Assembly: GCA_021783525.1 (NCBI GenBank)
Contig: JAJXTT010000002.1
Location: 1-41,409, forward strand
Direction: 5' to 3'
Length of the DNA stretch: 41,409 bases
Source of the DNA: Pseudomonadota bacterium
GTDB taxonomy: Bacteria; Pseudomonadota; Gammaproteobacteria; Burkholderiales; Gallionellaceae
Made by a program: the position numbers and the translations under genes
In this document: positions 25,682 to 40,134 of the stretch, one piece after another
Layout: each line of letters begins with the position of its first letter
Position numbering within the stretch: position 1 is the first letter of the stretch
Notes under the pieces: generated by a model
What the model saw: only the letters and a program-made list of their open reading frames with translations
Database searches by the model: none
What the model was told of the DNA's origin: nothing

Positions 25682-26022
25682 TCGCGACGGGACGGCAGGG
25701 TGCCGATCAGGCTGTCGAGCGCGACGTGTCCGCCATTGATGTTCCGGAAAACCTTGAAGACTTTTTCCTGCGCGGGCGTGGAGTGCACAAAGTCGTGATA
25801 TGCGCGTGCCAGCAGATTTTGACACGCAGCATGCAAAGACGGCGCATTCAGCTCGGCGAGTCCGGGTGTCGCCCGCAGGTACTGCTGGAAACGCTTCAGG
25901 ATGTGTAAGCGGTTGACGTGCACGACCGGCGGATCGAACGAGACAGAAAAATAATGGAAGAACTCCTCGGCAGCTGAAAGACGGCTAAGGTTCTGGTACA
26001 GGGCTTCGAGGGCTTGGGTCAT
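25678..26022 (-). CDS. nifW: Nitrogenase-stabilizing protein NifW
   Basis: LSRLSAAEEFFHYFSVSFDPPVVHVNRLHILKRFQQYL; located between fixA and cysE/nifV. Confidence 0.92.
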   Translation of the reverse strand: MTQALEALYQNLSRLSAAEEFFHYFSVSFDPPVVHVNRLHILKRFQQYLRATPGLAELNAPSLHAACQNLLARAYHDFVHSTPAQEKVFKVFRNINGGHVALDSLIGTLPSRRE

Positions 26023-26825
26023 AAATTTATCCTTGGCGGCATCCACTGGTCAGTGGGGTTGCGCTTGAGGTTGTCGCTGACTGACACCTGGACCGGATCG
26101 CAGCCGTCCACACAGACGTCACAATCGCCGCTGACCGGAACCCGTTTGCCGGTCACCGCGGCCAGTGGCGACACAAGTCGGGTGATGTGTTCGAGCAGGC
26201 AGGCGACTGCCTTGCCGACCGGGTCGGGCAGCAGATGATGATCGATGCCGTGTTCGGCGATGCGCCGATTGGCAAGCGGTAAACTCACGCGCCCAGGGAT
26301 GTCGATTACGGTCATCTGCGCCGGGACGTGCTGGATTACCACCGAGTTGGCGCCGATGCGGGTGTGCCGGCTGACGCTGATCGGACCGAGAGCCCTGGCG
26401 CCGGCTCCGACCACCCCGCCGTTGCCGAGCGTCGGGTGGCACATGCCCGGGTTCCAGGAAACACCGTCGAGGGTGACGCCATGGTAAAGCGTGACACCGT
26501 CTCCGATTTCGGCGGTTTCATTGGTCACGACAGCCCAGCTGTGATCGATAAAGAAGCGTCGGCCGATGCGCGTGCCGGAATCCATGCCGACCTGGGTGAT
26601 GGCACGTGTGAGAAAACCCAGAAACCGCGCCAGATAGCGCCAGTTGCGACGCCACAGCGCATCTGCCAGCCGATGGGCGATCAAGACATGAAGGTCCGGG
26701 TAGGTCGTGAGCCCCGCAAGGCGCGTGCGCGCTGCCGGGTCGCGCTTGAACACACAATGCAGGTCCTCGCGCGAGAGGGCAAAGAGGCCGCTCCGTGGGA
26801 TCATTGCGTCAATGCTGGCGCGCAT
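26019..26825 (-). CDS. cysE: Serine O-acetyltransferase (nif-cluster cysE/nifP type)
   Basis: Left-handed beta-helix hexapeptides, [57 protein letters not shown]. Confidence 0.92.
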
Positions 26826-31609: not shown

Positions 31610-31664
31610 TGTTGCGAACGCGACAAAGCGCTACATGTTTCGCGGTCGTGTCGATATTGCGACA
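31610..31664. promoter_or_regulatory. Two NifA-type UAS upstream of nifB (TGTTGCGAACGCGACA 31610-31625; TGTCGATATTGCGACA 31649-31664)
   Basis: Exact TGT-N10-ACA matches, 39 bp apart, 56 bp and more upstream of the sigma54 element. Confidence 0.82.
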
Positions 31665-31719: not shown

Positions 31720-31734
31720 TGGCATGCCGATTGC
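31720..31734 (+). promoter_or_regulatory. sigma54 (-24/-12) promoter of nifB: TGGCATGCCGATTGC
   Basis: GG-N10-GC, ~80 bp before nifB ATG. Confidence 0.9.
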
Positions 31735-31816
31735 TTTGTGCTACTCAGGCGTATTGTGAGTTGAAGGCACATGTCATGAACAGGTGTCTCGTCAGCTACC
31801 AAGAGCGGAGATACAC

Positions 31817-33376
31817 ATGAGGAAAGCAATCGATGTCAGCATTGGCGTCGTGCAGGAAATGAAGCCACTTGATAAGGTCATGCAGAAAATGGCCGAGCAT
31901 AAGGGCTGCGGGATGTCGGCTGGAAGTGGCAAAGCCAGTTGCGGGTCAGCGGCCGGACAGGGCGATCTGGCACCGGAAGTCTGGGAGAAAGTAAAAAACC
32001 ACCCATGCTATAGCGAAGAGGCGCACCACCACTACGCGCGCATGCACGTAGCCGTGGCGCCGTCCTGCAACATGCAGTGCAACTACTGTAACCGTAAGTA
32101 CGACTGCGCCAACGAGTCGCGCCCCGGTGTGGTGAGCGAAAAGCTAACTCCCCAGCAGGCAACAAGAAAAGTACTGGCAGTGGCCTCGGCCATCCCGCAA
32201 ATGACCGTGCTTGGCATCGCCGGGCCCGGTGACCCGCTCGCCAACCCGGAGAAGACCTTTAAGACCTTCGAGTTGATCTCGAAGGCCGCACCCGACATCA
32301 AGTTGTGCCTGTCGACCAATGGGCTCGCGCTGCCCGACCATGTTGACACGATCAAGAATTTAAATGTCGATCACGTGACCATCACGATCAATATGATCGA
32401 CCCCGAGGTGGGCGCTGAGATTTATCCGTGGATTTTCTACAAACACAGGCGCATCAAGGGCAGGGAGGCGGCGAAGATTCTTACTGAACGCCAGTTGCAG
32501 GGGCTCGATATGCTCACCGAGCGCGGCATCCTGTGTAAGGTCAACTCAGTGATGATACCTGGCATCAACGATCGGCACCTTGTGGACGTCAATAAGGCGG
32601 TGAAATCGCGCGGCGCCTTCCTGCATAACATCATGCCGCTCATCTCCTCGCCTGAGCACGGCACGGTGTTCGGGCTCACCGGCCAGCGCGGTCCGAGCGC
32701 GCAGGAGCTAAAGGATCTGCAGGACAGTTGCGAGGGCCAGATGAACATGATGCGCCATTGTCGCCAGTGCCGGGCCGATGCCGTTGGGCTGTTGGGTGAG
32801 GACCGATCTGCCGAATTCACTACCGAGAAGATTATGGCGATGGATGTGAACTACGACGCCGACACGCGCAAGGCCTATCAGCAGATGGTTGAGCAGGAAC
32901 GCCGGAGCAAAGTCGCGGCCCGCCAGGACGGGCTCTCGCAGCTAGCTGGCGAGACTAGCGACATCCGGGTGCTGGTCGCGGTTGCGACCCAGGGTTCGGG
33001 CCGGATCAACGAGCATTTTGGCCATGCCAGGGAGTTTCAGGTTTATGAGCTGAGCACTGGCGGTGCCAAGTTTGTCGGTCATCGGCGTGTGGATCTCTAC
33101 TGCCGGGGTGGCTACGGCGAGGAGGATTCGTTGCCGACTGTCATTCGTGCCATCAATGATTGCCACGCGGTATTCGTCGCCAAGATCGGTGGCTGTCCGC
33201 GCGGCGAGCTGATCCAGGCAGGCATAGAGCCCGTGGACCGGTACGCACACGAATTCATCGAGCAGTCGGCGTTCGCCTGGTTCAAGGGATACCTGGACAG
33301 GGTGAAGCGCGCAGAGATCCGGCACGCAGCGCGTGGCGATGCCGATATCCGTCAGGGCGCGTATGTCGTGGCATGA
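31817..33376 (+). CDS. nifB: FeMo-cofactor biosynthesis radical SAM protein NifB with C-terminal NifX-like domain
   Basis: [29 protein letters not shown]-terminal [29 protein letters not shown]. Confidence 0.97.
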
Positions 33377-33647: not shown

Positions 33648-34016
33648 ATGAACGTCACGATCACTCCGGCCGCCGCGAAATTCATTCGCAGAATGATTCG
33701 TTTCAATGGCAGCGACCGGGACGGATTCCGCCTGGTGATGACCGCCACCGGTTGCTCTGGACTGGGTGCCGAGTTCAGCATCGCGACGACGCCGCGCGCC
33801 GGCGACAGCGTGCTTGAACACGACGGCCTCAAGCTGTTCCTGCCGCCCGAGAGCCGCCTGCTTCTGGAAGGTGTCACCATCGACTTCAGCGACACGCCGA
33901 TGAGCAGCGGCCTGAGATTCGTCAATTCAAACGCCGTGCCCTGCTCGGGAACCTGTTCCAGCAAGGCGCCTGCGACGTGCACGTTCGACGCCGCAGGTAT
34001 CGGGCGCAAGTACTGA
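33648..34016 (+). CDS. nif-cluster HesB/IscA-like protein
   Basis: MNVTITPAAAKFIRRMIRFNG..GFRLVMTATGCSGLGAEFSI...NSNAVPCSGTCSS. Confidence 0.85.
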   Translation: MNVTITPAAAKFIRRMIRFNGSDRDGFRLVMTATGCSGLGAEFSIATTPRAGDSVLEHDGLKLFLPPESRLLLEGVTIDFSDTPMSSGLRFVNSNAVPCSGTCSSKAPATCTFDAAGIGRKY

Positions 34017-34305: not shown

Positions 34306-34608
34306 ATGGGTGACATCAATCGCAATAGCGACGTGCTGGAACTCAATGGTCCACCGCGTTTCGAATACGGCCAGAAGGTGCGCGCGCGCTGCACGATCCG
34401 CAACGACGGCACTTTTCCGGGCCGCAACATCGGCGACATTCTGGTTAAAAAGGGCGACGAAGGGTACGTCGCCAGCATCGGCACTTTCCTGCAGCAGTTT
34501 TACATCTATGGCGTGGACTTCGTGATACACGGTTACCAGGTTGGCATGAAGAGCCGCGAGCTGGACCCGGTGGAACCATCACAGCCGAATCAGGAACGCA
34601 CGGTATGA
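34306..34608 (+). CDS. nifZ: Nitrogen fixation protein NifZ
   Basis: PPRFEYGQKVRARCTIRNDGTFPGRNIGDILVKKGDEGYVASIGTFLQQFYIYGVDFV. Confidence 0.92.
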   Translation: MGDINRNSDVLELNGPPRFEYGQKVRARCTIRNDGTFPGRNIGDILVKKGDEGYVASIGTFLQQFYIYGVDFVIHGYQVGMKSRELDPVEPSQPNQERTV

Positions 34609-34901
34609 ACGTTAAAGTGGGACATTCAGGCCCCTCGTTTCGCGTCTCGGCCCCATCGGAGACCGACGCACGCGATCTGAAATATCAGCGCGGCCAGCAA
34701 GTACGCGCCGCCGTTGTCCTGAATAACGACGGCAGTCATACCGCGCACGATCCGGATGTCTGGCTGGTGCCGGACGATGCGTCTGGCGAGATCGTAAAAA
34801 CTGATGTGCACGTAGAGTCGAACACGCCGGTGTATATGGTGAAGTTTTCCTGGATTCGTCCCGTGGCGGGATTCCTGGAACAGGAAATCACGCCGGAATG
34901 A
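34605..34901 (+). CDS. Second NifZ-like protein
   Basis: RGQQVRAAVVLNNDGSHTAHDPDVWLVPDDASGEIVKTDVHVESNTPVYMVKF: same spacing of YGQ/VRA..NDG..VGF-like motifs; overlaps nifZ stop. Confidence 0.75.
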   Translation: MNVKVGHSGPSFRVSAPSETDARDLKYQRGQQVRAAVVLNNDGSHTAHDPDVWLVPDDASGEIVKTDVHVESNTPVYMVKFSWIRPVAGFLEQEITPE

Positions 34902-34911
34902 CGGGGCGGCG

Positions 34912-35277
34912 ATGACTGCCAAAGTGAGCGAAAGGTTTTTGGCCGGTCCGGGCGGTTGTCCGCACCCGAATGACGTCGATCGCAAGCGCATAGAACGCGC
35001 GCTGGCCAATCGTGGGCGATACCGTTACGTAACCCCGGTGGTGCGACCGGCAGTGCGAGGGTACCGCATCGAGAGTCCCTGTTGCTCGCGCAACGTCGAT
35101 CAGAATGGCGGCACTATCGATATCGCGCGGATCGAATTTGGTCTGCAGTTGTGCCGATGGCGACTGTATCGCCGTGATCACCGGCGGAACGAATGGGAAT
35201 TTTACGCGGAATACGCGACGCTCGCGGCGCTGGTAAACGAACTGAATGAGGATCTGAGGCGGGCATTCTGGCAATGA
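34912..35277 (+). CDS. Conserved-looking hypothetical protein between nifZ and nifS (121 aa)
   Basis: Full ORF overlapping nifS start by 4 nt (ATGA), translational-coupling arrangement; family not recognised. Confidence 0.7.
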   Translation: MTAKVSERFLAGPGGCPHPNDVDRKRIERALANRGRYRYVTPVVRPAVRGYRIESPCCSRNVDQNGGTIDIARIEFGLQLCRWRLYRRDHRRNEWEFYAEYATLAALVNELNEDLRRAFWQ

Positions 35278-36416: not shown

Positions 36417-36528
36417 CGGGGTCTGGATCCTGGCTGTAGCGAAGTGTGGCCGAGCTATCGAAACGTTCCCAGATTCTGGTGCATCGCAACTGCAGTAGGG
36501 CCACAAATCGAAATGATCGAGGATGACC

Positions 36529-36738
36529 ATGAAGGTAATGATCCGCAGAGACAGTGAAGGGGTGTTTTCCGCCTATGTCGCCAAGAAAGACCTGGAAGAG
36601 CCCATCGTAGCGATGGACCATCCGCAGCTGTGGGGCGGGTGCGTGACGCTTGCCAACGGCTGGCGGCTGGAACTGCCGGCCTTGGCCGCCGACACCGCGT
36701 TGCCGATCACGGTCGAGGCGCGCCGCTTGACCGAATGA
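36529..36738 (+). CDS. nifT: Nitrogen fixation protein NifT
   Basis: MKVMIRRDSEGVFSAYVAKKDLEEPIVAMDHPQLWGGCVTLANGWRLELPAL. Confidence 0.92.
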   Translation: MKVMIRRDSEGVFSAYVAKKDLEEPIVAMDHPQLWGGCVTLANGWRLELPALAADTALPITVEARRLTE

Positions 36739-36846
36739 CCATGGCGATCAGCGACCGGAACTTCACCGAATTCGCAACGCTGCTGGCCGGTCGTGCCAAT
36801 GTCAGTGCCAATGTGGTCATTTATCTCTAATTGTCAGGAGGAAGTC

Positions 36847-37059
36847 ATGGGGAATTCGGAGATTATGATTCACGTGCGGTTCTCGCAGGACGGCACAGCG
36901 CGCGAAGTGAGTGCGCGACCGGCTGCTTTGAGCGCCCAGGACTGGGTCAATCGCCTGAGCAAGGAGGCCGCAAACGTCTATTGGGCACTGTCCGGCGGAC
37001 GCGGGTTGTTCCAAGTATCAGTGGTACAGCTGCAGTTGCTGCAATCGGGGATGTCGTGA
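36847..37059 (+). CDS. Small hypothetical protein co-transcribed with nifT (70 aa)
   Basis: ORF with RBS (CAGGAGGAAGTC ATG) overlapping the start of the SIR2-like gene. Confidence 0.7.
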   Translation: MGNSEIMIHVRFSQDGTAREVSARPAALSAQDWVNRLSKEAANVYWALSGGRGLFQVSVVQLQLLQSGMS

Positions 37060-37907
37060 TGGCCGCGGTCGATGAAGTCTTCGCGGGTATCGCGAACGGT
37101 GCAGTCATTCCATACCTGGGTCCGGGAGTGCTGGCTGCCACGCCCGGCAGCGAGGCTTTGCCTGGCTCGCCAACGCGCCTGGTGTTACGGCTGGTGGCCA
37201 AAGCGAGCGTGCCGCACAAGATCCGGAACAACCTTACCGCTGCAGCCCAGTTCATCGAGAATTTCAAGCACCGCAAGACGGTGGTTAAGGCGATGACCGA
37301 GGCTTTCAGCGTCGAAGTTGCTCCCGGCGATCTGCACCACTACTTTGCATCGTTGCCACAACTGCCGGTGATCGTCTCTACTTGGTACGACGGTCTGTTG
37401 ATGAAGGCGTTCGCGTCACATGGCAGTTGGGGTGCGGTGCAGGGCGTGAGCCAGTCGGAGCACTTTGGCATATGGACGCAGTATTTCGACCGGAACGGTG
37501 CTCGGGTAGATGAAGCCCGCGCGCGCGATTGGGCAACGCTGCTATATCAACCGCTCGGGTCAATTGTGCCGGCTGCGAATTTCCTGGTGTCGGATACTGA
37601 CTTTGTTGAAGTTCTTACTGAAATCGACATCCAAACACCGATTCCGGCCCTGGTACAGGAGCGGCGGCGCGGCCGGCATTTCTTGTTTCTTGGCTGTCGT
37701 TTCGCCACCCAGCTTGACCGGCTGTTTGCGCGTCAAATCATGAAGCGTTCCTCTGACAGACACTGGGCGCTGCTAGAAGGCGATCTCACACACAACGAGG
37801 CGCGGTTTTTGGATGAGCAGAACATCGAGCGCATCGGTATGTCGCTGGTGGAATTCCTGACACATTCAGGAAAGTCCGGCACGCGGCCACCGGTGACGGC
37901 GGTTTGA
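37059..37907 (+). CDS. SIR2-like domain protein associated with nif cluster
   Basis: GAVIPYLGPGVLA at N-terminus, VSTWYDGLLMKAF (cf. TTNYDxLLE), LYQPLGSIVPAANFLVSDTDFVEVL (cf. KLHGSID...), FLFLGCRFATQLDRLF (cf. FLGYSFxDPxLxxLL). Confidence 0.8.
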   Translation: MAAVDEVFAGIANGAVIPYLGPGVLAATPGSEALPGSPTRLVLRLVAKASVPHKIRNNLTAAAQFIENFKHRKTVVKAMTEAFSVEVAPGDLHHYFASLPQLPVIVSTWYDGLLMKAFASHGSWGAVQGVSQSEHFGIWTQYFDRNGARVDEARARDWATLLYQPLGSIVPAANFLVSDTDFVEVLTEIDIQTPIPALVQERRRGRHFLFLGCRFATQLDRLFARQIMKRSSDRHWALLEGDLTHNEARFLDEQNIERIGMSLVEFLTHSGKSGTRPPVTAV

Positions 37908-37925
37908 ACTTTTGGAGGTGCGGTC

Positions 37926-38114
37926 ATGGCAGTCAGAATTTTTTGCGATTGCGGCAAGGAAATCACGCATGAAATTTCGCTCTGGGACCGGAAGACACGC
38001 TCTATATTCTGGATGGAGCAGAACCCGCCTTCCTGCGCCATCTGTTGGAAGCAGCAGGCACCGTCGCGGACCTCGGGCGATACCGGGATTCGACGGAAGG
38101 TGGCTGTGCAATGA
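37926..38114 (+). CDS. Small Cys-containing hypothetical protein (62 aa)
   Basis: MAVRIFCDCGKEITHEISLWDRKTRSIFWMEQNPPSCAICW: CxC...CxxC pattern; GGAG RBS just upstream. Confidence 0.55.
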   Translation: MAVRIFCDCGKEITHEISLWDRKTRSIFWMEQNPPSCAICWKQQAPSRTSGDTGIRRKVAVQ

Positions 38115-38134: not shown

Positions 38135-39107
38135 CTACGTCCGGTTATGTGCAGAAATAGGCTGAATCAGAGAGAAGTCAGCACCACCCCTGCAGTGCCG
38201 CAGAACGAGTGCCCAGGTTCCGCGACAAAGCTTTGCAAAATTTCCGTCCGAATTTCTTTGCGATATATGGAGGTATCCCATGTGAAAATGCAACTTCATG
38301 TGCAACCTCGCCGCAGTGAAAATTCCTGGAAAACTTTCCGGTGGTACGGAACCGCCGCCGGCCCGTAAGGTCGTTGCCACATTTAGAATTGCTGTTTGAA
38401 TGATGCAGGAGTCCTGCTTTGGGTTTGCGTCGCCACAGCGCCATGGTGAGCGCGTCGGTGGCAAGCTCTGCGGTGAGCCGGCTGCCCATGCCCAGCCGAT
38501 GACCGCCCGCGAGTAGAGATCGAGCACGACAGCAAGATAAAGCCAATCTTCGTCGGTCCAGACATAGCTGATGTCCCCCGCCCACACGCGATCCGGTGGC
38601 GTGACCGCGAACTGCCGGTCAAGCGTATTGGCCGCTACCGGCAGTTTGTGGGAAGAATTCGTGGTCGCCTTCCATTTTTTCACGGTTTCGGCCCGGATGC
38701 CGTGGCGGCACATCAGGTGCGCCACACGGTTTTCGCTGCAGGACTGTCCTTCCAACCGCAGCGCGCGCGTGATGCGCGGGCTGCGGTAGGTCTCGCGGGA
38801 TTGGGCATGGCAGGCACGGATGCGTACTGCCAGGGCCTCGTTGGATCGGGCACGGGGGCTTTCCGGCCTCCGGGCCCAGGCGTAATAAGCCCGCGTGAGA
38901 GACTTTGAGGGCACGAAACGGCACACCCGCACGGCGTTTGCGGGATTCGCGAACAGCCGGCAGAGCATCACGGCGGGGGCGAAGAAAGCGGCGAAAGCGG
39001 GGGCGAGAAGCGGGGGTAAGGGCGGAAAAGGTTCGGGAGACAAGTCGGACGGAGGCGAGAACGAAGAAGGTGCCGCCACGACAGGCAGCGCGGCCCCCTC
39101 GGATCAT
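38135..39107 (-). pseudogene. IS3-family transposase (OrfB) remnant, frameshifted and truncated
   Basis: AYYAWARRPESPRARSNEALAVRIRACHAQSRETYRSPRITRALRLEG...NTLDRQFAVTPPDRVWAGDISYVWTDEDWLYLAVVLDLYSRAVIGWAW; continues in another frame as GSRLTAELATDALTMALWRRKPKAGLLHHSN, DDE core incomplete. Confidence 0.88.
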
Positions 39108-39202: not shown

Positions 39203-39589
39203 CTATAAATCCTCAGGAAAGCCCGAGGCGCGGTTGGCGACCTTGCGGTCCCGTATCTTCCGGTACTTCAAAATCAGGGGGTCTGAGCTACGGCGAGGAT
39301 CCCCTTTGGGCGGGAATTTCGTTCCCCTGGCCTCCTCCGCCTGCTCTATGGCGACCTCCCGCCAGGCGCCGGCCTGATCCATCATGGTGAGGTACAGGCG
39401 ATCCAGCCGCTCGTACTTCGCCATCAGCTTCTTGAATTCAGCCTCCCACGCATCCGAGGCCTTTTTCCATGCGTGGGTGGCCTGCTGTGCCTTGTCTACC
39501 TCCAACCTCTGAAAATGATCCCGCAGGGAGGCGTTTGCGGCGCCGAACCCCAGAATGTCGTTGCCATCTATTTTCGGATCGTAAGGCAT
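39203..39589 (-). CDS. Hypothetical protein, copy 1 of a tandem paralogous pair
   Basis: ...KYERLDRLYLTMMDQAGAWREVAIEQAEEARGTKFPPKGDPRRSSDPLILKYRKIRDRKVANRASGFPEDL; strongly similar to the 39715 ORF. Confidence 0.7.
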   Translation of the reverse strand: MPYDPKIDGNDILGFGAANASLRDHFQRLEVDKAQQATHAWKKASDAWEAEFKKLMAKYERLDRLYLTMMDQAGAWREVAIEQAEEARGTKFPPKGDPRRSSDPLILKYRKIRDRKVANRASGFPEDL

Positions 39590-39714: not shown

Positions 39715-40134
39715 CTAATAATCCTCGGGCTTGCCCGCCGCGCGGTTGGCGATCTTGCGGTCCCGTATTTTCTCGTATTTCGAACCTAAAGGCTCCAGCG
39801 CTTTTTTGCGGCGCGGATCCCCTTTGGGCGGGAAAGGATGTCCTTGTATCTCCTCCGCCTGCTCTATGGCGATCTCCCGCCAGGCGCCGGACTGATCCAT
39901 TAGGGTGAGGTACAGGCGATCCAGCCGCTGATACTTCGCCAGCAGCTTCTGACATTCGGCCTTCCACGCGTCCGACAGCGGGTCCGCAGAACATGGACCG
40001 CTGCGCGGGTCGGTCAGGCGCTCGGCGACTCGGCGACTCGGCGAAGGACGGCGCGGTGGGTGATCTGGGTCACGGGGTTTTCGGGTAATCGGCGAACTGA
40101 GTCGCTGATTCTTGCGGGCGATTGGTTCTGGCAC
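39715..40134 (-). CDS. Hypothetical protein, copy 2 (N-terminus divergent, possibly truncated)
   Basis: ...KYQRLDRLYLTLMDQSGAWREIAIEQAEEIQGHPFPPKGDPRRKKALEPLGSKYEKIRDRKIANRAAGKPEDY. Confidence 0.55.
   Translation of the reverse strand: MPEPIARKNQRLSSPITRKPRDPDHPPRRPSPSRRVAERLTDPRSGPCSADPLSDAWKAECQKLLAKYQRLDRLYLTLMDQSGAWREIAIEQAEEIQGHPFPPKGDPRRKKALEPLGSKYEKIRDRKIANRAAGKPEDY

What the first reader, a model, noticed from the sequence alone, without database searches (positions are those of the whole stretch)
36847..38114. nif-linked SIR2-like protein with apparently lost catalytic residues, between two unknown small proteins
Directly after nifT comes a translationally overlapping set: a 70-aa protein (36847-37059), a 282-aa SIR2-like protein (37059-37907) and a 62-aa CxC/CxxC protein. 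In bacterial SIR2/NADase domains (e.g. the ThsA type) the conserved Asn of the TTNYD-like motif and the His of the KLHG-like motif are catalytic. Here the corresponding stretches read VSTWYDGLL and LYQPLGS, so both residues appear replaced. This suggests an NAD(P)/ADP-ribose-binding sensor or scaffold rather than an NADase or deacylase. Its place in a nif operon, with no draT/draG seen in the window, makes it a candidate redox or post-translational regulator of nitrogenase. The sequence motifs are observed; the function is inference.
Basis: partly seen in the sequence, partly recalled or inferred. Interest (0 to 1): 0.75.

Follow-up and report, generated by a model that had tools for sequence, protein, structure and literature searches.

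The report
Nif-linked SIR2-like protein, catalysis lost
Next to nitrogen-fixation genes sits a protein with the fold of NAD-cutting sirtuin enzymes but without their two cutting residues; relatives occur only in nitrogen-fixing bacteria of the genomes sampled, which points to a dedicated and still unexplained helper of nitrogenase rather than a deacetylase or toxin.

Summary
Observation confirmed. The 282-aa ORF is a SIR2_2-domain protein whose model matches ThsA, DSR2 and KomC. Profile alignment to ThsA puts Trp109 on the catalytic Asn and Leu166 on the catalytic His. It belongs to a nif-dedicated family with two branches. In the W-branch (window) Trp109 is invariant; the N-branch keeps Asn but has Leu/Met for His. 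None of 148 members has both. In 276 class-level genomes the family is in 24 of 28 nifD-bearing genomes and 0 of 248 others. nifT lies upstream in 75 of 80 W-branch loci; the other five are contig-edge cases.
The window lost 1,375 bp: most of a DUF6129 gene and a DegT-like gene whose family lacks the PLP lysine. The flanking small ORFs are less conserved.
Published data, linked by annotation and gene order: NifA-dependent expression (Rhodobacter); induction, with a deacetylase proposed (Zymomonas); 23% nitrogenase activity in a P. stutzeri mutant; no symbiotic defect in a Mesorhizobium mutant.
Best reading: a NifA/sigma54-expressed, non-catalytic accessory protein for nitrogenase maturation or protection. 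NAD binding is unproven and looks weakened.

The parts
37059..37907 (+). nif-linked SIR2_2-domain protein, 282 aa; W109 at the catalytic Asn position, L166 at the catalytic His position
   Evidence: dN/dS 0.20 against L001
36847..37059 (+). orf70: 70-aa small protein (L-S-G-G-R-G-x-F motif, predicted b-b-a-b-b-a), 1-nt overlap with the SIR2 gene; in 31 of 79 other relatives
   Evidence: no significant Pfam/NCBIfam/PHROG match, no significant Foldseek match
37926..38114 (+). orf62: 62-aa Cys-containing protein (CDC, CAIC); homologues only in L001 and L002 among fetched loci; weak constraint (dN/dS 0.88)
36741..36830 (+). deletion scar: start of the DUF6129 gene fused to the last codons of the DegT-like gene (1,375 bp missing relative to L001, junction 36797/36798)
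36523..36738 (+). nifT (fixU)
   Evidence: TIGR02934, PF06988
35274..36416 (+). nifS-type cysteine desulfurase
   Evidence: homologues before nifT in 56 of 79 relatives; family name from sequence and conserved neighbourhood
34912..35277 (+). orf121; the gene in this position in Methylococcus EFPC2 is annotated DUF3024 protein
34605..34901 (+). nifZ copy 2
   Evidence: conserved position in relatives; annotated NifZ in L185
34306..34608 (+). nifZ copy 1
33648..34016 (+). IscA/HesB-type iron-sulfur accessory protein
   Evidence: TIGR00049
33412..33636 (+). fdxN-type 2[4Fe-4S] ferredoxin
31784..33376 (+). nifB, first gene of the putative transcript that ends with SIR2
   Evidence: homologues in 65 of 79 relatives
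31720..31735 (+). sigma54 -24/-12 site TGGCATGCCGATTGCT upstream of nifB
   Evidence: 7 sites of the pattern in the window against 1.35 expected
31610..31664 (+). two NifA upstream activator-like sites TGT-N10-ACA (31610-31625, 31649-31664)

Best explanation
A nitrogenase accessory protein with a SIR2 (ThsA-type) fold that no longer performs canonical NAD+ chemistry. It is made with the nifB-fdxN-nifZ-nifS-nifT maturation genes, probably from the NifA/sigma54 promoter before nifB, and works by binding rather than catalysis: most likely as a protein-protein factor in maturation or protection of nitrogenase, in many genomes together with a DegT-like aminotransferase homologue that lacks its PLP lysine, a 2Fe-2S ferredoxin and orf70. 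Shown here: family, fold, loss of catalytic residues across the family, nif-restricted distribution, purifying selection. From papers: NifA-dependent expression of annotated homologues, and a strong activity loss in one mutant. Inferred: operon membership in this organism, the binding mode, the partner and the step served.
For: SIR2_2 domain E=1.9e-20. AlphaFold model pLDDT 87.8, pTM 0.88; best PDB matches ThsA E=2.2e-11, DSR2, KomC. Asn to Trp and His to Leu in profile alignments with ThsA. Trp at 109 in all 83 close relatives; His absent at 166 in those and in all 24 distant ones; 0 of 148 members with both Asn and His. Class sample: 24 of 28 nifD+ and 0 of 248 others (Fisher 9e-31 before correcting for kinship). 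Phylum sample: 17 SIR2+ genomes, 15 with nifD over cut-off and two with other nif-type hits. nifT upstream in 75 of 80 W-branch loci, five exceptions at contig edges. dN/dS 0.20 although the DegT partner is gone. sigma54 and NifA-like sites upstream of nifB. R. capsulatus Rcc03262 not found in a nifA mutant, in operon nifB1-rcc03265-nifZT-rcc03262 (PMC6925177). P. stutzeri PST1325, annotated SIR2 in PMC11332353, has 23% activity in a mutant called non-polar (PMC2820453). DegT-like lysine position is never Lys in 61 sequences.
Against: M. loti msi351, the sirtuin-like gene after fixU/nifT, gave fully effective nodules when disrupted (PMC3538637), so it is not generally required. Four of 28 nifD+ genomes in the class sample and over half in the phylum sample lack it. 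Eight alphaproteobacterial W-branch members keep the His, so some chemistry is not excluded. Many charged residues are invariant across both branches, which also fits an altered active site. No partner or ligand was identified, and co-transcription is inferred from spacing and promoter motifs only.
Confidence: 0.6

Rival explanations
1. A nucleotide sensor: it binds NAD(P)+, NADH or ADP-ribose without hydrolysing it and signals redox or ADP-ribosylation state to nitrogenase or to DraT/DraG.
For: SIR2 fold with both glycines of the GxG loop kept; N-branch copies sit directly beside draT, and beside a hemerythrin gene in several families; 10 W-branch loci carry draG-draT nearby.
Against: GAGxS became GPGVL and GFSFTD became GCRFxxQ in the W-branch, so the nucleotide site is altered. 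No dependence on DraT over diazotrophs: 14 of 24 SIR2+ genomes lack DraT and 3 of 4 SIR2- genomes have it. No binding data.
Confidence: 0.22
2. An active NAD+-dependent lysine deacylase of nitrogenase or NifA, as suggested for Z. mobilis ZMO1821, or an enzyme with a rearranged active site.
For: ZMO1821 is co-induced with nitrogenase, and NifA, NifH and NifK are acetylated in N2-fixing Z. mobilis (PMC8600466). Many invariant charged residues in the family; His kept in 8 members.
Against: Catalytic Asn is Trp in every W-branch member and His is Leu/Met in every N-branch member; none has both. The closest structures are NADase-type SIR2 domains. ZMO1821 itself was not sequence-checked here.
Confidence: 0.1
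3. An anti-phage NADase (Thoeris-like) that happens to sit in the nif cluster.
For: ThsA models match weakly: E=3.5e-4 for the window protein, 13 of 25 members at 0.001; best Foldseek hit is ThsA.
Against: Catalytic residues lost; no ThsB/TIR partner gene noticed; found only in nif+ genomes of the samples; NifA-dependent protein level in R. capsulatus (PMC6925177).
Confidence: 0.02
4. A decaying relic in this organism: the window lost DegT, ferredoxin and most of DUF6129, and SIR2 is only a leftover.
For: 1,375-bp deletion in the window and frameshifted DegT in L001; IS3-type transposase on the opposite strand just downstream.
Against: SIR2 is full length in both and dN/dS is 0.20, close to nifS at 0.15; rhizobial and Rhodopseudomonas clusters keep SIR2 right after nifT or DUF6129 with no DegT between.
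Confidence: 0.06

Closest known systems
ThsA SIR2 domain (Thoeris; PDB 6lhx, 8bto, 7uxt)
   Same: Same fold (Foldseek E=2.2e-11, TM 0.65) and local sequence match around the Asn motif and the YKxHG motif
   Different: Asn to Trp, His to Leu, altered GAGxS and GFSFTD motifs; about 200 residues shorter, without ThsA's second domain; nif-linked instead of defence
KomC and DSR2 SIR2 NADases (PDB 9xvc, 8zsf, 8wya)
   Same: Same fold; KomC is a stand-alone domain of similar length (264 aa), profile E=4e-5
   Different: KomC and DSR2 are catalytic NADases of phage defence; this family lacks the catalytic pair
Annotated nif SIR2 proteins: R. capsulatus Rcc03262, Z. mobilis ZMO1821, P. stutzeri PST1325, M. 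loti msi351
   Same: Same genomic setting; described in papers as nif-regulated or N2-induced (PMC6925177, PMC8600466, PMC2820453, PMC3538637); R. etli CFN42 RHE_RS30545 was fetched and is a W-branch member
   Different: Not joined into one family in the papers found, and the missing catalytic residues were not noted in the passages read; the four named sequences themselves were not fetched here
FAM118B (PDB 9r3e, 9r0p)
   Same: Weak profile match over 48 residues (E=0.3)
   Different: Not a significant match; no nif link

Membership tests
Pfam SIR2_2 (PF13289) | Score over the gathering cut-off | tested here: met
   73.8 bits against 24.5; N-branch 38.7 bits, rhizobial 73.2
Pfam SIR2_2 (PF13289) | SIR2-type Rossmann fold | tested here: met
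   AlphaFold pLDDT 87.8; best PDB matches ThsA, DSR2, KomC
SIR2 NADases (ThsA/DSR2/KomC type) | Catalytic Asn of the TTNYD motif | tested here: not met
   Trp109 in alignment with ThsA; Trp in all 83 close relatives
SIR2 NADases (ThsA/DSR2/KomC type) | Catalytic His of the K-L-H-G motif | tested here: not met
   Leu166 in the window; His kept only in 8 alphaproteobacterial members, which have Trp at the Asn position
SIR2 NADases (ThsA/DSR2/KomC type) | NAD+ hydrolysis | not testable with these tools
   needs purified protein
Thoeris defence system | ThsB (TIR) partner gene | tested here: inconclusive
   None noticed among the neighbours read; no TIR-profile search was run
Sirtuin deacylases (CobB type) | Catalytic His | tested here: not met
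   The corresponding position holds Leu in the window, judged by alignment to ThsA, not to CobB
nif-dedicated SIR2-like family (defined here) | Occurs in nif-bearing genomes only | tested here: met
   24 of 24 in the class sample; 17 of 17 in the phylum sample counting two with nifE-type or fragmentary nif hits
nif-dedicated SIR2-like family (defined here) | Downstream of nifT (W-branch) or beside nifH, often after draT (N-branch) | tested here: met
   75 of 80 W-branch loci, five at contig edges; N-branch layouts

The most novel reading that the evidence does not exclude
Two neighbouring pseudoenzymes, a SIR2-fold protein without its NAD chemistry and a DegT-fold protein without its PLP lysine, form a nitrogenase-specific module that handles a cofactor or assembly intermediate by binding, with a dedicated 2Fe-2S ferredoxin.
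Probability: 0.2. Interest if true: 0.82.

Novelty: new variant of a known kind. Interest (0 to 1): 0.62.

Why it matters
In the class-level sample, 24 of 28 nitrogen-fixing genomes carry this gene and no other genome does, yet it has no name or function. One paper assumes that a homologue is a deacetylase; the sequence argues against that. A mutant of an apparent homologue lost about three quarters of nitrogenase activity, so the question can be tested at once, and the protein may matter for moving nif clusters into new hosts.

Tried and rejected
NCBIfam and PHROGs gave nothing for the SIR2 protein. phmmer with the single protein found no SIR2 structure; profiles did. DraT dependence tested and not found. 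Viral structure library: one weak Sir2 match, E=3.6e-4. orf70 fold search gave no match below E=0.3. One alignment failed on a frameshifted orf70 in L010. A plasmid search was first given the wrong strand. Considered and rejected: defence NADase, and chance association with nif.

Full report
What was claimed and whether it is there. The three ORFs exist at the given places. The middle one is a SIR2_2-domain protein (PF13289, E=1.9e-20). Its start codon overlaps the stop codon of the 70-aa ORF by one base; the 62-aa ORF follows after 18 bases.

Fold and catalytic residues. An AlphaFold model on 54 homologues reached pLDDT 87.8 and pTM 0.88. Its best solved matches are ThsA (E=2.2e-11), then DSR2 and KomC, all SIR2 NADases of phage defence. 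Profile searches of PDB sequences align ThsA TTNYD with the family's xxWYD, so Trp109 takes the catalytic Asn; the ThsA construct in 8bto reads TTAYD at this place. ThsA YKMHG and YKLHG align with YKPLG, so Leu166 takes the His. The loops that hold NAD in SIR2 proteins differ too: GAGxS against GPGVL, and GFSFTD against GCRFxxQ. That these loops bind NAD is established knowledge of SIR2 proteins; that binding is weakened here is inference.

The loss is family-wide. The 80 best relatives in the genome collection are 54-64% identical, apart from a 96% sister contig, L001. Trp is at position 109 in 83 of 83 close relatives. A second, distant branch (about 28% identical) has Asn there in 24 of 24 but Leu at the His position; Met also occurs there in wider sampling. 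Among 148 aligned members none has both Asn and His. Eight alphaproteobacterial members keep the His, all with Trp at 109. The tree separates the W- and N-branches with full support across a long branch. A query from the N-branch finds, among 72,556 plasmids at E<=1e-10, only records from rhizobia, Methylococcus and Paraburkholderia, groups that the W-branch query also finds. The two branches are therefore most likely one family.

It belongs to nif clusters. nifT lies upstream on the same strand in 75 of 80 W-branch loci at 21-2,304 bp, and the five exceptions are at contig edges. N-branch copies lie beside nifH, in several genomes with draT between. In 276 genomes of the window's class, 24 carry the family; all 24 have nifD, and none of the 248 genomes without nifD has it. 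Fisher's exact p is 9e-31, which ignores kinship. G272's nifD is split over two contigs and was counted as present. In 349 genomes of the phylum, 17 carry the family: 15 have nifD over the cut-off, and G394 and G528 have nifE-type or fragmentary nif hits. 38 genomes there have nifD over the cut-off, so in the phylum as a whole it is common, not universal. Symbiotic plasmids carry it too, for example nifA-nifB-4Fe4S-nifZ-nifT-SIR2 on R. etli p42d.

The window's own copy. Relatives usually have, between nifT and SIR2, a DUF6129 protein, a DegT/DnrJ/EryC1/StrS-type protein (PF01041, E=4.6e-92) and often a 2Fe-2S ferredoxin and orf70. The PLP lysine of perosamine synthetase aligns with Gly or Ser in 54 of 61 DegT-like sequences and with Lys in none. 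In L001 the DegT-like gene is frameshifted; in the window a 1,375-bp deletion removed it. SIR2 stayed intact with dN/dS 0.20, near nifS (0.15), whereas orf70 (0.57) and orf62 (0.88) look weakly constrained, on few changes.

Expression. A -24/-12 site and two NifA-like sites precede nifB, and the genes from nifB to SIR2 run on one strand. That SIR2 is transcribed from there is inferred. In R. capsulatus the annotated SIR2 protein Rcc03262 is in operon nifB1-rcc03265-nifZT-rcc03262 and was not found in the nifA mutant (PMC6925177). In Z. mobilis ZMO1821 rises under N2 fixation, and the authors suggest a deacetylase (PMC8600466).

Genetics already published. A P. stutzeri PST1325 mutant, called non-polar, has 23% of wild-type nitrogenase activity at 0.5% oxygen, the lowest of nine mutants tested (PMC2820453). 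PST1325 was an unnamed hypothetical there; a later paper lists it as SIR2 family protein, just before nifH (PMC11332353). An M. loti msi351 insertion mutant formed fully effective nodules (PMC3538637). These sequences were not fetched, so their membership rests on annotation and gene order. The contrast could mean a role that matters for free-living, microaerobic fixation but not inside nodules; that is inference.

Mechanism. The combination of a kept fold, a lost catalytic pair, strict nif linkage and NifA control fits a non-catalytic accessory factor. A nucleotide sensor remains possible. Dependence on DraT was tested and not found: 14 of 24 carriers lack DraT, and 3 of 4 non-carrier diazotrophs have it. 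Linkage of N-branch copies to draT and, in several families, to a hemerythrin gene hints at regulation or oxygen handling in that branch.

Limits. The assembly is 63% complete. The names of the genomes behind the samples are hidden; that the order is Burkholderiales rests on G050 contig C13 having the length of the Sulfuricella T08 contig. The pocket could not be inspected in three dimensions.

Noticed in passing
G000:C67 (L161) and G000:C245 (L121): The same assembly holds a second nifHDK set with draT and an N-branch SIR2 split over two contigs, so G000 has two nif clusters or the bin is mixed; the window's cluster is unlike that of its genus mates.
   Followed up: partly
L002:6278-7423 and 60 other full-length homologues: DegT/DnrJ/EryC1/StrS-type protein in nif clusters whose PLP-lysine position is mostly Gly/Ser and never Lys: a second pseudoenzyme-like gene of the same operon.
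   Followed up: partly
L109-L118, L148, L150, L152, L153, L159: Hemerythrin-type gene downstream of N-branch SIR2 on the same strand; in some families also a 74-aa Cys-rich protein with weak DUF1289 similarity.
   Followed up: partly
window 38135-39079 (-): IS3-type transposase ORF (NF033516, below the family cut-off) directly downstream of orf62.
   Followed up: no
window 39203-39589 and 39715-40134 (-): Two similar ORFs of 128 and 139 aa without Pfam match, lying in a direct repeat (126 nt at 90% and 94 nt at 80% identity, about 515 bp apart).
   Followed up: no
window 26019-26825 (-): Serine O-acetyltransferase-like gene overlapping the nifV-like gene, as also in L023.
   Followed up: no
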